Assembly: GCF_040147005.1 (NCBI RefSeq) | Contig: NZ_JAMSHO010000001.1 | Span: 558,001 to 622,000 of the forward strand | DNA: 64,000 nucleotides | Direction of reading: 5' to 3' | Source: Halomonas sp. H10-9-1 | GTDB lineage: Bacteria > Pseudomonadota > Gammaproteobacteria > Pseudomonadales > Halomonadaceae | In this document: piece after piece, positions 38,634 through 57,639 of the stretch | Position numbering within the stretch: the first letter of the stretch is position 1 | Layout: each line of letters opens with the position of its first letter | Notes under the pieces: model-generated | What the model was told of the DNA's origin: nothing | The model's database searches: none | The model's input: the letters and a program-made list of their open reading frames with translations, nothing else | Program-made: the position numbers and the translations under genes

Positions 38634-38709
38634 GGGTGGTTAGCTCAGCTGGGAGAGCACCAGCCTTACAAGCTGGGGGTCACAGGTTCGAACCCTGTAC
38701 CACCCACCA
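38634..38709 (+). tRNA. tRNA-Val (anticodon TAC)
   Basis: 76 bases including the encoded CCA. The acceptor GGGTGGT pairs with ACCACCC. The anticodon stem CCAGC/GCTGG encloses the loop CTTACAA, giving anticodon TAC. The T arm is GGTTCGAACC. First of five tRNA genes. Confidence 0.97.
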
Positions 38710-38747
38710 CTGCTCAGGCAGTCCCGATCATGTAGGTAGCACGCAGC

Positions 38748-38824
38748 GGACCGGTAGTTCAGTTGGTTAGAATGCCGGCCTGTCACGCCGGAGGTCGCGG
38801 GTTCGAGTCCCGTCCGGTCCGCCA
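38748..38824 (+). tRNA. tRNA-Asp (anticodon GTC), copy 1
   Basis: 77 bases with encoded CCA. The acceptor GGACCGG pairs with CCGGTCC, discriminator G, anticodon loop CTGTCAC with GTC. The sequence appears identical to the copies at 38854 and 39064. Confidence 0.97.
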
Positions 38825-38853
38825 ACGTGTTTCCGATCAGTCAGCCCTGTTGC

Positions 38854-38930
38854 GGACCGGTAGTTCAGTTGGTTAGAATGCCGGCCTGTCACGCCGGAGG
38901 TCGCGGGTTCGAGTCCCGTCCGGTCCGCCA
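38854..38930 (+). tRNA. tRNA-Asp (anticodon GTC), copy 2
   Basis: Same cloverleaf as copy 1, 29 bases further on, with encoded CCA. Part of the Val-Asp-Asp-Val-Asp transcript. Confidence 0.97.
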
Positions 38931-38983
38931 TCAAGGCCTGGCAGCTTGCTTGAGAAAGTGCAGTATCCAAAGTGCGATAACGT

Positions 38984-39060
38984 GGGTGATTAGCTCAGTT
39001 GGTTAGAGCACCAGCCTCACATGCTGGGGGTCACTGGTTCGAATCCGGTATCACCCACCA
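38984..39060 (+). tRNA. tRNA-Val (anticodon CAC)
   Basis: 77 bases with CCA. Acceptor GGGTGAT/ATCACCC, anticodon stem CCAGC/GCTGG around the loop CTCACAT, so anticodon CAC, reading GUG only. This complements the TAC isoacceptor of the same cluster. Confidence 0.95.
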
Positions 39061-39063
39061 CGC

Positions 39064-39140
39064 GGACCGGTAGTTCAGTTGGTTAGAATGCCGGCCTGTC
39101 ACGCCGGAGGTCGCGGGTTCGAGTCCCGTCCGGTCCGCCA
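39064..39140 (+). tRNA. tRNA-Asp (anticodon GTC), copy 3
   Basis: Third copy of the same tRNA-Asp, only 3 bases after tRNA-Val(CAC). Encoded CCA; followed by the cluster terminator. Confidence 0.97.
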
Positions 39141-48482: not shown

Positions 48483-48569
48483 TGGTGCCCAGGAGAGGAC
48501 TTGAACCTCCACATCCGTAAGGATACTAGCACCTGAAGCTAGCGCGTCTACCAATTCCGCCACCTGGGC
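48483..48569 (-). tRNA. tRNA-Leu (anticodon CAG), copy 3 of cluster
   Basis: 87 bases with encoded CCA and a long variable arm. Anticodon loop TTCAGGT gives CAG. The variable arm pairs ATCC with GGAT, whereas the other copies pair GTCC with GGAC, a compensatory change. Confidence 0.96.
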
Positions 48570-48608
48570 GCATCATGCATCTCGTCGTGTTCGCGTCTCC
48601 CGGAGGAG

Positions 48609-48695
48609 TGGTGCCCAGGAGAGGACTTGAACCTCCACGTCCGTAAGGACACTAGCACCTGAAGCTAGCGCGTCTACCAATTCCGCCACCTGGGC
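48609..48695 (-). tRNA. tRNA-Leu (anticodon CAG), copy 2 of cluster
   Basis: 87 bases, acceptor GCCCAGG/CCTGGGC, variable arm GTCC/GGAC, encoded CCA. Confidence 0.96.
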
Positions 48696-48728
48696 GTACA
48701 CGAGCGAGTCGAACTGTAAAAAGAGCGA

Positions 48729-48815
48729 TGGTGCCCAGAAGAGGACTTGAACCTCCACGTCCGTAAGGACACTAGCACCTGAAGCTAGCGCGTCTACCAA
48801 TTCCGCCATCTGGGC
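48729..48815 (-). tRNA. tRNA-Leu (anticodon CAG), copy 1 of cluster
   Basis: 87 bases. It differs from copy 2 at the last acceptor pair, G-C becoming A-T (GCCCAGA/TCTGGGC), again compensated. First transcribed of the three. Confidence 0.96.
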
Positions 48816-54623: not shown

Positions 54624-57266
54624 ATGTCAGAAATGCTCGAGCACGACCAGGAAACCGCCGCCCTCAAGGTGCCGCCCCACTCGTTGGAGGCGGAGCAGTC
54701 GGTGCTGGGCGGACTGATGCTCGACAACCAGGCCTGGGACAACGTCGCCGACCGCCTGGTGTCCGACGACTTCTATCGCTACGAACACCGCTTGATCTTC
54801 AATGTCATGGCCGAGCTGGCCGAGTCGGCGCGGCCGTTGGACGTGGTGACCCTCTCCGAGGCGCTGGAGGGGCGCGACCAGCTCGATACCGTGGGCGGCC
54901 TGGCCACACTCGCCGAACTCGCTCGCAACACCCCTTCCGCCAGCAATATCCGCGCCTACGCCGATATCGTCCGCGAGCGTGCCACCCTGCGCAAGCTGAT
55001 CCGTGCCGCCAGCCAGATCGCCGATGGCGCCTTCAGCCCCCAGGGGCGGCCGGCGGATGAGCTGGTCGATGAGGCCGAGCGGCTGGTGTTCCAGATCAGC
55101 GAGGAGCGCCCCAAGTCGGGTGGCCCCATCGGCATGAGCGACCTGCTCGCCAAGGCGGTGGACCGCATCGACGAGCTGTTCAACATGAAAGGCGAGATGA
55201 CCGGCCTCTCCACCGGCTTCCGCGACCTGGACGAGATGACCTCGGGCCTGCAGCCCTCGGACCTGGTGATCATCGCCGGGAGGCCCTCCATGGGCAAGAC
55301 CACCTTCGCCATGAACCTCGTGGAACACGCGGTTATCTCCAGCGAGAAGCCGGTGATGGTGTTCTCGATGGAGATGCCCGCCGATGCCCTGATGCTGCGC
55401 ATGCTGTCGTCACTGGGGCGCATCGACCAGACCCGGATGCGCACCGGTCAACTGGAAGACGAGGACTGGCCCCGGCTGACCTCGGCGGTGAACCTGCTCA
55501 AGGACAAGCAGCTATTCATCGATGACACCGCGGCGCTTTCGCCCAACGAGATGCGCTCGCGGATCCGTCGCCTGGTGCGTGAGCACGGTAATGTCGGGCT
55601 GGTGATGATCGACTACCTGCAGCTGATGCAGATCCCCGGCTTCTCCGAGAACCGCACCGGCGAGATCTCCGAGATTTCTCGCTCACTCAAGGGGCTGGCC
55701 AAGGAGTTCGGCTGCCCGGTGGTGGCGCTCTCCCAGCTCAACCGCTCCCTCGAGCAGCGCCCCAACAAGCGCCCGGTGATGTCGGACCTGCGTGAGTGTG
55801 TGACCGGAGACACACTTGTCATGCTGACGGATGGCACGCGCCGGCCTATTGCGGAGCTGGTGGGCCAGTCGCCGAGGCTGTGGTCGGTCAATGCCGCTGG
55901 GCGACTCGAGCCCGCGGCAAGTGACAAGGTGTGGTCGGTAGGGCGTCGTCCCGTATGGCGAGTCCGTCTAGCCAGCGGGCGCACTCTTCGCTGCACCGCC
56001 GAACATCGGTTGCGGGCCTGGGATGGTTGGAGAAAGCTGGCAGAGCTCGGAGTGGGAGATCGCCTCGCCCTGTCCAACCACCTGCCGGCACCCGCTTCTC
56101 CGGAGCGCTGGTCCGAGGAGGCGCTGATTCTGCTGGCCCACCTGGTGGGAGATGGTAGTTACGTATCGGGCCAACCACTGCGCTATACCACCGCGAGCGA
56201 GGCCAACAGTACCGCGGTCACCGAGGCTGCCGAGGCGCTGGGCTCCCGGGTGAGTCGTCACGCGGGCCGTGGCAGCTGGCACCAGCTGGTGATTGCCGGC
56301 AACGGTAATCGCTGGCACCCGGCAGGGGTCGGGAAGTGGTTGAAGGAGCTAGGCATCTTCGGACAGCGCTCGCGTGAGAAGCGTCTGCCAGATGGCATCT
56401 TCCGTCTCGATCAGGAACAGTTGGCGCTCTTCCTCCGTCATCTGTGGGCGACAGATGGCAGTATCACCCTGAGTTCGCAGGGAAGAGGGCGCATCTATTT
56501 CAGCACCGCGAGCCGTGGCCTGATCGATGATGTGGCGGCGTTGTTGATGCGCTTCGGCATCCTTGCCAGGATCAAGCATAGCGTTGCGGGAAGCGGCGTC
56601 GGCTGGTTCACCGCGGATGTCTCGGGGACCGTGCAGCAGCGTCGTTTCCTGGAGTGCATCGGTGCCTTCGGCGAGCAGCAGCCTCGCGCTGCCGAACTGC
56701 TGGCTCGCCTGGTCGATATTGTTCCCAATACCAATGTCGATACCCTGCCCAGGGAGGCCTTTCAGCAGGTCAAGGCTCTTATGGCGGCGCGTGGCGTTAG
56801 TCAGCGCGAGATGGCCCGCCTGCGCGGGACGGCCTATGGAGGAACCTCGCACTTTCGCTTCGACCCCTCCCGCACCACCCTGGCAAGCTATGCCGATTTG
56901 CTGGGAGACGGGGCACTGCGGGCGCGCGCGACGGATGATCTCTTCTGGGATCGTATTGTCGAGATTGTGGCCGAGGGGGAAGAGGAGGTCTTCGATCTGA
57001 CGGTGCCAGGCAATGCCTGCTGGCTGGCTGATGGCATCGTCACTCATAACTCTGGCGCCATCGAGCAGGACGCAGACGTGATCGCCTTCGTCTACCGCGA
57101 CGAGGTCTATAATCCTGACAACCCCGACAATCAGGGGCTCGCCGAGTTGATCATCGGCAAGCAGCGTAATGGCCCCATCGGCACGGTACACATGGCATTT
57201 ATCGGCCGCTATACCCGCTTCGAGGACCTGGCGCCTGACAGCTATGGGGACGGTTTCGGCGAGTGA
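54624..57266 (+). CDS. dnaB: Replicative DNA helicase DnaB containing an intein
   Basis: The precursor is 880 residues. The N-extein (residues 1-391) has the N-terminal interaction domain and the RecA-like core with Walker A GRPSMGKTTF (about 218-227) and the Walker B-type LVMIDYLQLMQI. It runs to SDLRE. Residues 392-809 are an intein. The C-extein begins SGAIEQDADVIAFVYRDE and contains KQRNGPIGT. Removing the intein leaves 462 residues, close to the 471 of E. coli DnaB, and restores the unbroken SDLRESGAIEQDAD motif. The helicase unwinds DNA at the fork, so splicing must be efficient. No second dnaB is visible here. Confidence 0.97.
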   Translation: MSEMLEHDQETAALKVPPHSLEAEQSVLGGLMLDNQAWDNVADRLVSDDFYRYEHRLIFNVMAELAESARPLDVVTLSEALEGRDQLDTVGGLATLAELARNTPSASNIRAYADIVRERATLRKLIRAASQIADGAFSPQGRPADELVDEAERLVFQISEERPKSGGPIGMSDLLAKAVDRIDELFNMKGEMTGLSTGFRDLDEMTSGLQPSDLVIIAGRPSMGKTTFAMNLVEHAVISSEKPVMVFSMEMPADALMLRMLSSLGRIDQTRMRTGQLEDEDWPRLTSAVNLLKDKQLFIDDTAALSPNEMRSRIRRLVREHGNVGLVMIDYLQLMQIPGFSENRTGEISEISRSLKGLAKEFGCPVVALSQLNRSLEQRPNKRPVMSDLRECVTGDTLVMLTDGTRRPIAELVGQSPRLWSVNAAGRLEPAASDKVWSVGRRPVWRVRLASGRTLRCTAEHRLRAWDGWRKLAELGVGDRLALSNHLPAPASPERWSEEALILLAHLVGDGSYVSGQPLRYTTASEANSTAVTEAAEALGSRVSRHAGRGSWHQLVIAGNGNRWHPAGVGKWLKELGIFGQRSREKRLPDGIFRLDQEQLALFLRHLWATDGSITLSSQGRGRIYFSTASRGLIDDVAALLMRFGILARIKHSVAGSGVGWFTADVSGTVQQRRFLECIGAFGEQQPRAAELLARLVDIVPNTNVDTLPREAFQQVKALMAARGVSQREMARLRGTAYGGTSHFRFDPSRTTLASYADLLGDGALRARATDDLFWDRIVEIVAEGEEEVFDLTVPGNACWLADGIVTHNSGAIEQDADVIAFVYRDEVYNPDNPDNQGLAELIIGKQRNGPIGTVHMAFIGRYTRFEDLAPDSYGDGFGE
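55797..57050 (+). mobile_element. DnaB intein with LAGLIDADG homing endonuclease
   Basis: 418 residues inserted in frame. It starts with Cys (CVTGDTLVMLTDG, block A), has block B TAEH, and ends VFDLTVPGNACWLADGIVTHN (blocks F and G) with penultimate His, terminal Asn and Ser as +1 extein residue, so all class 1 splicing residues are present. The endonuclease has two LAGLIDADG-type helices, LLAHLVGDGSY and LRHLWATDGSI, whose acidic residues are precursor D510 and D611 (intein 119 and 220). Both are intact, suggesting an active homing enzyme. An additional segment (about 700-780) contains an HTH-like stretch. Confidence 0.95.
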
Positions 57267-57345: not shown

Positions 57346-57639
57346 ATGGCAGGCGGATTTCAGCGCGGCAATCGACGCCGCACCCCCAAGCTGGAGGCGC
57401 GCGGCGAGCTCCAGTCTGTAGAGCGGGAAGGCCCGTTCAAGGAGTGGTTGGGCATGCCCGACCTCTACCGCTACCAGCTGGTGGTGGAGGGCGAGACCTA
57501 CAGCTACCAGACCGAGGACGCCGAGTTGCCGGTGGCAGTCGGGGACCGTGTGGTGTTCCGCTACAAGGAGACCAAGGCCGGCAAGTGGGTCGACCGTAAC
57601 TCCCTGGGCAAGGCCATCGATCCCTCAGATTATCAATAG
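57346..57639 (+). CDS. Small basic protein, function unknown
   Basis: 97 residues. A basic N-terminus (MAGGFQRGNRRRTPK) is followed by a beta-rich stretch with alternating hydrophobics (LYRYQLVVEGETYSYQTED, VGDRVVFRYKETKAGKWVD) that could form a small barrel such as an OB or SH3 fold. I do not recognise a named family. GGAAGGAGG is an excellent ribosome binding site, and a near-consensus promoter precedes it, so high expression is likely. Confidence 0.75.
   Translation: MAGGFQRGNRRRTPKLEARGELQSVEREGPFKEWLGMPDLYRYQLVVEGETYSYQTEDAELPVAVGDRVVFRYKETKAGKWVDRNSLGKAIDPSDYQ

What the first reader, a model, noticed from the sequence alone, without database searches (positions are those of the whole stretch)
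55797..57050. Full-length intein in the replicative helicase DnaB
A 418-residue in-frame insertion splits the invariant SDLRE/SGAIEQDAD motif of DnaB. It carries every class 1 splicing residue (Cys1, TAEH, His-Asn end, Ser +1) and two intact LAGLIDADG motifs. Excision restores a normal-length helicase. As I recall, the Synechocystis DnaB intein interrupts SG|SIEQDAD, two residues further on, so this may be a nearby but distinct insertion point. The sequence shows the intein directly; homing activity is inferred from intact acidic residues.
Basis: partly seen in the sequence, partly recalled or inferred. Interest (0 to 1): 0.78.

Follow-up and report, generated by a model that had tools for sequence, protein, structure and literature searches.

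The report
Self-splicing intein in DnaB helicase
The gene for this bacterium's replication helicase carries a complete self-removing protein insert (an intein with a homing endonuclease), a known kind of mobile element, sitting two residues away from the textbook cyanobacterial site and apparently acquired from a different source than the copy in the closest sampled relative that has one.

Summary
The 880-residue dnaB frame (54624-57266, +) has an in-frame 418-codon insert (55797-57050) between E391 and S810; 28 of 28 fetched intein-free congeners read straight through. It is a class 1 intein (C1, T67xxH70, D400, H417, N418, Ser +1) with two LAGLIDADG motifs; its predicted model (pLDDT 92) matches solved intein-endonucleases. 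119 of 120 listed homologues use this site; in a 58-row tree it is one clade apart from RESG|S inteins. It borrows the Ser of 'SG' as +1 and so fits hosts with Ala next. It is patchy in the genus (4 of 90). Silent divergence from the nearest carrier's intein (dS 0.89) far exceeds that of the dnaB exteins (0.23) and neighbouring genes (0.19), so the two came from different sources. The endonuclease is under purifying selection. Splicing and cutting were not tested. Ordinary kind, well-documented case.

The parts
54624..57266 (+). dnaB precursor gene, 880 residues, with stop codon
54624..55796 (+). N-extein of DnaB (391 residues, ends SDLRE)
55797..57050 (+). intein, 418 residues (HINT splicing domain with nested LAGLIDADG endonuclease)
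55797..55799 (+). Cys1, first splicing nucleophile (block A)
   Evidence: C in 120 of 120 aligned RE|SG inteins (119 listed proteins plus Euzebya)
55995..56006 (+). block B T67-A-E-H70
   Evidence: T 113 and S 7 of 120, H 120 of 120
56130..56156 (+). LAGLIDADG motif 1 (LLAHLVGDG, Asp119)
   Evidence: D119 in 118 of 120
56427..56459 (+). LAGLIDADG motif 2 (LFLRHLWATDG, Asp220)
   Evidence: D220 in 119 of 120, one gap
56988..57011 (+). block F VFDLTVPG (Asp400)
   Evidence: D400 in 120 of 120
57045..57050 (+). block G His417-Asn418
   Evidence: HN 120 of 120
57051..57053 (+). Ser +1, second nucleophile, the Ser of host SGxIEQDAD
57051..57266 (+). C-extein of DnaB (71 residues plus stop)

Best explanation
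A full-length class 1 intein of the DnaB motif-H4 site, sub-site RE|SG. The precursor is translated whole. Cys1 attacks the Glu(-1)-Cys1 bond, Ser(+1) takes over the N-extein, Asn418 cyclises with help from His417, and the exteins rejoin as a 462-residue DnaB with SDLRE-SGAIEQDAD restored. The nested LAGLIDADG endonuclease is expected to cut intein-free dnaB alleles across this junction, so that repair copies the intein in. Shown: sequence anatomy, predicted fold, empty alleles, patchy distribution, divergence mismatch with the host gene, purifying selection. Inferred: splicing, cutting, the order of chemical steps (taken from established class 1 chemistry).
For: Profiles; splicing-domain similarity to solved Ssp and Npu DnaB mini-inteins (E 6.5e-22 to 1.9e-19); catalytic residues the same in 120 of 120 or nearly so; AlphaFold2 model pLDDT 92.2, pTM 0.91 matching whole intein-endonucleases TliVMA 7qss (E 6e-23, TM 0.71 by query length), PI-PfuI 1dq3 (0.63) and PI-SceI 1vde (0.52), and Ssp DnaB mini-intein 6frh at 1.0 A over 98 columns; empty site in 28 of 28 fetched congeners; 4 of 90 genus genomes carry it; intein dS 0.89 (95% bootstrap 0.73-1.11) against 0.23 (0.18-0.29) for dnaB exteins and 0.19 (0.15-0.23) for four neighbouring genes in the nearest carrier G124; endonuclease dN/dS 0.11-0.16 in six of six carrier pairs.
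Against: Nothing tests activity. Purifying selection on the endonuclease domain could instead reflect a structural role in splicing, as reported for another intein (passage in PMC10643990). A possible homing footprint (Arg CGT codon at -4) did not repeat in new carriers. HEN dN/dS is higher than that of the splicing part in 6 of 6 pairs, so constraint on it is weaker. Only 1 of 398 genomes of a phylum sample matched at E 1e-40, the window's own.
Confidence: 0.92

Rival explanations
1. The intein splices, but its endonuclease no longer homes; it is a fixed passenger inherited vertically in this lineage.
For: Only 4 of 90 genus genomes carry it; mini-inteins at the same site in other genera show that the endonuclease can be lost.
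Against: Both active-site Asp residues intact, dN/dS 0.11-0.16. Carriers G000 and G124, closest in dnaB exteins and neighbours among those compared, hold inteins about four times more diverged at silent sites than those genes, which simple vertical descent does not give.
Confidence: 0.3
2. The intein stays because its splicing regulates DnaB under stress (conditional splicing), as argued for the mycobacterial P-loop intein DnaBi1.
For: Insertion in a conserved DNA-binding loop of an essential helicase; precedent in PMC6195587 and PMC7360933 (abstract and passages).
Against: In M. smegmatis the motif-H4 intein DnaBi2 spliced fast and appeared largely unresponsive to the oxidants tested, though the authors note that it may have been too fast to show an effect (PMC6195587 passages); 86 of 90 genus genomes gave no such intein.
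Confidence: 0.1
3. The segment is a normal DnaB domain or an annotation or assembly artefact.
For: None found.
Against: Exact in-frame absence in 28 of 28 fetched congeners; the same insert at the same point in three other genus genomes and in other genera.
Confidence: 0.01

Closest known systems
Synechocystis sp. PCC 6803 DnaB intein (Ssp DnaB; PDB 1mi8, 6frh)
   Same: Cys1 type, HN end, Ser +1, same host loop, homologous splicing domain
   Different: Inserted RESG|SIEQD, two residues downstream; relatives at that point fall outside the RE|SG clade (the Synechocystis intein itself was not a row)
Mycobacterial DnaBi2 / M. tuberculosis DnaB intein (motif H4; 'insertion site a')
   Same: Class 1 with endonuclease, motif H4 (PMC6195587 passages). 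NCBIfam NF005852 spans the whole insert, E 5.4e-112; that this model rests on mycobacterial DnaB is recalled
   Different: -1 residue is Gly (PMC6195587), from which I infer RESG|S. A Nocardia relative read here is RESG|S and 40% identical
RE|SG inteins in database proteins named for Halomonas sp. SSL-5, Alkalilimnicola ehrlichii, Vreelandella aquamarina, Thiothrix subterranea and others
   Same: Same point, same length class, one clade
   Different: 85-87% identity to the nearest seven listed, 65-67% to the next; 108 of 120 listed also carry a P-loop intein, absent here, in a list biased to such proteins
Class 3 P-loop inteins (mycobacterial DnaBi1; 'insertion site b')
   Same: Same host protein
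   Different: Other site, block F Cys instead of Cys1, no endonuclease (PMC6195587 passages)

Membership tests
Class 1 intein | Nucleophile at residue 1 (Cys/Ser) | tested here: met
   Cys1
Class 1 intein | Block B TxxH | tested here: met
   T67-A-E-H70
Class 1 intein | C-terminal Asn with penultimate His and Ser/Thr/Cys +1 | tested here: met
   H417 N418 S+1
Class 1 intein | HINT fold | tested here: met
   Predicted model against PDB, (prediction, not a solved structure)
Class 1 intein | Autocatalytic splicing | not testable with these tools
   needs expression
LAGLIDADG homing endonuclease | Two motifs each with acidic residue | tested here: met
   D119, D220 in sequence and alignment; Pfam LAGLIDADG_3 (its stretch covers residues 207-289)
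LAGLIDADG homing endonuclease | Cuts the empty target site | not testable with these tools
   needs enzyme assay
Ssp/Mtu-type DnaB insertion allele (RESG|S) | Inserted after RESG, host Ser of SIEQ as +1 | tested here: not met
   Insertion is RE|SG, host residue there is Ala
RE|SG DnaB intein clade | Same insertion point and one clade with it | tested here: met
   119 of 120 listed homologues read R[ED]|SG, 1 truncated; tree SH-aLRT 100, quick search without bootstrap

The most novel reading that the evidence does not exclude
Two old intein lineages compete for one DNA-binding loop of DnaB at points six bases apart. They are kept apart by which host serine can serve as +1: the RE|SG lineage uses the Ser of SG and so can enter helicases reading SGA, SGQ, SGN or SGG, whereas the RESG|S lineage is confined to SGS helicases. 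The host's variable residue would then decide which lineage can invade.
Probability: 0.5. Interest if true: 0.45.

Novelty: new member of a known kind. Interest (0 to 1): 0.3.

Why it matters
It is a clean example of a mobile intein in an essential helicase, with near relatives carrying and lacking it, which makes homing directly testable in halophiles of this genus. The two-residue offset with two separate lineages gives a simple hypothesis, availability of the +1 nucleophile, for where DnaB inteins can settle.

Tried and rejected
1) Homing footprint: Arg codon CGT at -4 stood in 8 of 9 full-length carriers with DNA then at hand (expected 2.0; P 1.7e-5, computed after the pattern was seen) and in 6 of 28 genus empties. 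In new full-length carriers it stood in 1 of 5 (L173 yes; L174, L175, L176, L177 no); a new mini-intein carrier (L178) has it, and 4 of 24 empties of that order have it. Rejected.

2) Strong coupling with the P-loop intein: 108 of 120 listed homologues also have a P-loop Cys intein (6 not, 6 undecidable). This list is biased, because the whole-protein score adds the homologous second intein. In a class sample of 369 genomes: RE|SG in 10, P-loop in 8, both in 3 (Fisher p 0.0008); genus 2 of 4 carriers against 4 of 86 others (p 0.02). Cut-offs (E 1e-20 in the class sample) can miss mini-inteins, and kinship was not corrected for (G382 and G478 are one genus). Some excess, not proof of coupling.

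3) Phage vector: 25 of 50,697 phage records match the intein at E 1e-5, all under 60% identity. The only ones annotated as replicative helicase DnaB are two entries of Planktothrix phage PaV-LD, whose mini-intein is RESG|S; two records have no annotation. No vector found for RE|SG.

4) Foreign base composition: 400-base windows inside the insert 0.63-0.66 G+C against 0.60-0.73 around it; uninformative.

5) Papers: no held paper contains Halomonas, intein and DnaB together. Searches for DnaB intein with insertion site, 'DnaB-b' (15), 'DnaB-c' (35) and wider terms (36, 37, 40, 73, 75) returned listings in which I saw no naming of the RE|SG point. I read passages only, of PMC6195587, PMC5050341, PMC10643990, PMC7360933 and PMC3620165, and no paper whole. 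Many subscription papers and InBase are not held, so prior naming cannot be excluded; I vaguely recall further DnaB allele letters in InBase, unverified.

Full report
What is there. The frame 54624-57266 (+) encodes 880 residues. Residues 1-391 and 810-880 are DnaB; residues 392-809 are the insert. The insert begins TGT at 55797 and ends AAC at 57050, followed by TCT. Gene order around it, by my reading of the translations (no family search was run on the neighbours): a DUF2232-like membrane protein, rplI, dnaB, a small frame at 57346-57639, and further on hemH.

Is it an insert? In a search of 97 relatives with the whole protein, most of the same-genus rows shown match residues 1-391 and then 809-880 in open frames of about 440-520 codons (its list of matches is cut). 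All 28 same-genus loci without the insert that I fetched (the best-scoring ones) carry the codons for SDLRE directly followed by SGAIEQDAD.

What is it? Pfam and NCBIfam call an intein splicing domain and a LAGLIDADG domain. The splicing halves align with the solved Ssp and Npu DnaB mini-inteins. A predicted structure from 30 aligned sequences has mean pLDDT 92.2 and matches whole intein-endonucleases (TliVMA 7qss, PI-PfuI 1dq3, PI-SceI 1vde; TM 0.71, 0.63, 0.52 by query length, rmsd 6-9 A). The splicing half matches the DnaB mini-inteins 6frh, 4o1r, 6fre and 1mi8 over 95-98 columns at 0.8-1.1 A. In 120 aligned RE|SG inteins (119 listed proteins, the window's own among them, plus Euzebya) Cys1, His70, Asp400, His417 and Asn418 are the same in all, Thr67 in 113 (Ser in 7), Asp119 in 118, Asp220 in 119 with one gap.

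Which insertion point? Solved Synechocystis constructs carry LRESG before and SIEQD after the intein. M. smegmatis DnaBi2 in motif H4 has Gly at -1 (PMC6195587, passages), which I take as RESG|S. The window is RE|SG. Of the 120 best of 4,591 homologues, 119 are R[ED]|SG and one is truncated; Glu stands at -1 in 109 and Asp in 11 of the 120 sequences counted with Euzebya. Of 83 other loci (80 named genome loci found with the Synechocystis/Nostoc mini-inteins, plus Nocardia, Euzebya and a phage), 77 are RESG|S, one (Euzebya) is RE|SG, and five gave no automatic junction; of these five the phage reads RESG|S by eye. Each set was fished with its own query, so the split is not a census. A tree of 58 rows chosen by me (29 RE|SG from the 120, 22 RESG|S, 7 P-loop as outgroup) puts the RE|SG rows in one clade (SH-aLRT 100, quick search, no bootstrap). 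The RESG|S rows form one group (SH-aLRT 99) except Nocardia, which is unresolved at the base.

Why two points? Splicing needs Ser, Thr or Cys at +1. The residue after SG is Ser in 76 of 76 RESG|S loci counted (L106, misread at its far end, was left out), which splicing itself demands. Among the 120 RE|SG sequences it is Ala 103, Ser 9, Gln 5, Gly 2, Asn 1. Empty alleles fetched in this genus (28 of 28) and in the order of G445 (24 of 24) have Ala. In such hosts only RE|SG offers a Ser. In the class sample the one RESG|S case met (G156) is in a host reading SIEQ. The rule is my inference; it fits the rows seen, but part of it follows from the chemistry and is no independent test.

Mobility. In the genus the RE|SG intein is in 4 of 90 species genomes (G000, G101, G030, G124). 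Six have a P-loop intein by similarity, and of these G030 and G101 have both. In the class sample RE|SG is in 10 of 369 (both junctions read in 9, one in G258). In a phylum sample of 398 only the window's own genome matched at E 1e-40. In orders around other carriers: 5 of 47, 1 of 5 and 2 of 24 at E 1e-60, plus one mini-intein (G867). Between the window and G124, the nearest carrier, dS is 0.19 (0.15-0.23) in four neighbouring genes, 0.23 (0.18-0.29) in the dnaB exteins and 0.89 (0.73-1.11) in the intein. Among the other three carriers intein and extein dS agree (0.22/0.23, 0.27/0.34, 0.33/0.35), so inteins are not simply faster. The window's intein therefore most likely came from another source than G124's. 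G056, second nearest of the four genomes compared in the neighbouring genes (0.34), has none.

Selection. dN/dS over six carrier pairs is 0.06-0.12 in the splicing part and 0.11-0.16 in the endonuclease part (residues 111-378). Both are held by selection, the endonuclease less. Loss does occur elsewhere: mini-inteins at RE|SG in G382, G478, G240 and G867, and a His in place of the second Asp in G296.

What it does. Best reading: it splices itself out after translation to give 462-residue DnaB and, through its endonuclease, invades empty dnaB alleles. Splicing and cutting are inferred. Two further dnaB genes in this genome lack inteins: one lies beside ParA-like and ParB-like genes, the other in what looks like a phage replication block (my reading of translations). 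An uninterrupted DnaB relative is thus encoded; whether it can replace the main helicase is unknown.

Placement. A new member of a known kind. The point RE|SG, as distinct from RESG|S, was not seen named in the listings and passages I looked at, but proteins with it are plentiful in public databases, and older intein catalogues could not be checked.

Noticed in passing
G030 (L002, L047), G101 (L048), G033, G040, G100, G112: A second intein at the DnaB P-loop in other members of the genus (break at residue 225-230 in G030, G033, G040; the rest by similarity), two of them beside the RE|SG intein. The junction GRPSMGK|C...HN|T was read in protein P0001. The window's own P-loop is uninterrupted.
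   Followed up: partly
L039-L046 (8 genus genomes); sequence read in L039 and L043 only: Another gene, which I read as a ribonucleotide reductase, carries inteins at ATNP|C...|CGEQPLPPEG (end HN in L039, GN in L043); the two read differ from each other.
   Followed up: partly
L208 and L209 (other places of the window's genome): Two further DnaB genes without inteins, reading ADLRDSGALEQDAD (next to ParA-like and ParB-like genes) and ADLRESGSLEQDAD (phage-like replication block).
   Followed up: partly
L143 (G382), L144 (G478), L150 (G240), L178 (G867), L138 (G296): RE|SG mini-inteins without endonuclease (about 148-196 residues) and, in G296, a His in place of the second LAGLIDADG Asp: stages of endonuclease decay at the same point.
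   Followed up: partly
L053, Planktothrix phage PaV-LD: A phage DnaB carries a RESG|S mini-intein, a possible carrier for the other lineage.
   Followed up: no
L063, L080, L130: RESG|S inteins of 140, 146 and 217 residues in contigs assigned to Pacebacteria, Berkelbacteria and Gracilibacteria.
   Followed up: no
window 38634-39140 and 48483-48815: Two tRNA arrays: Val-Asp-Asp-Val-Asp on + and three tRNA-Leu (CAG) in a row on -.
   Followed up: no
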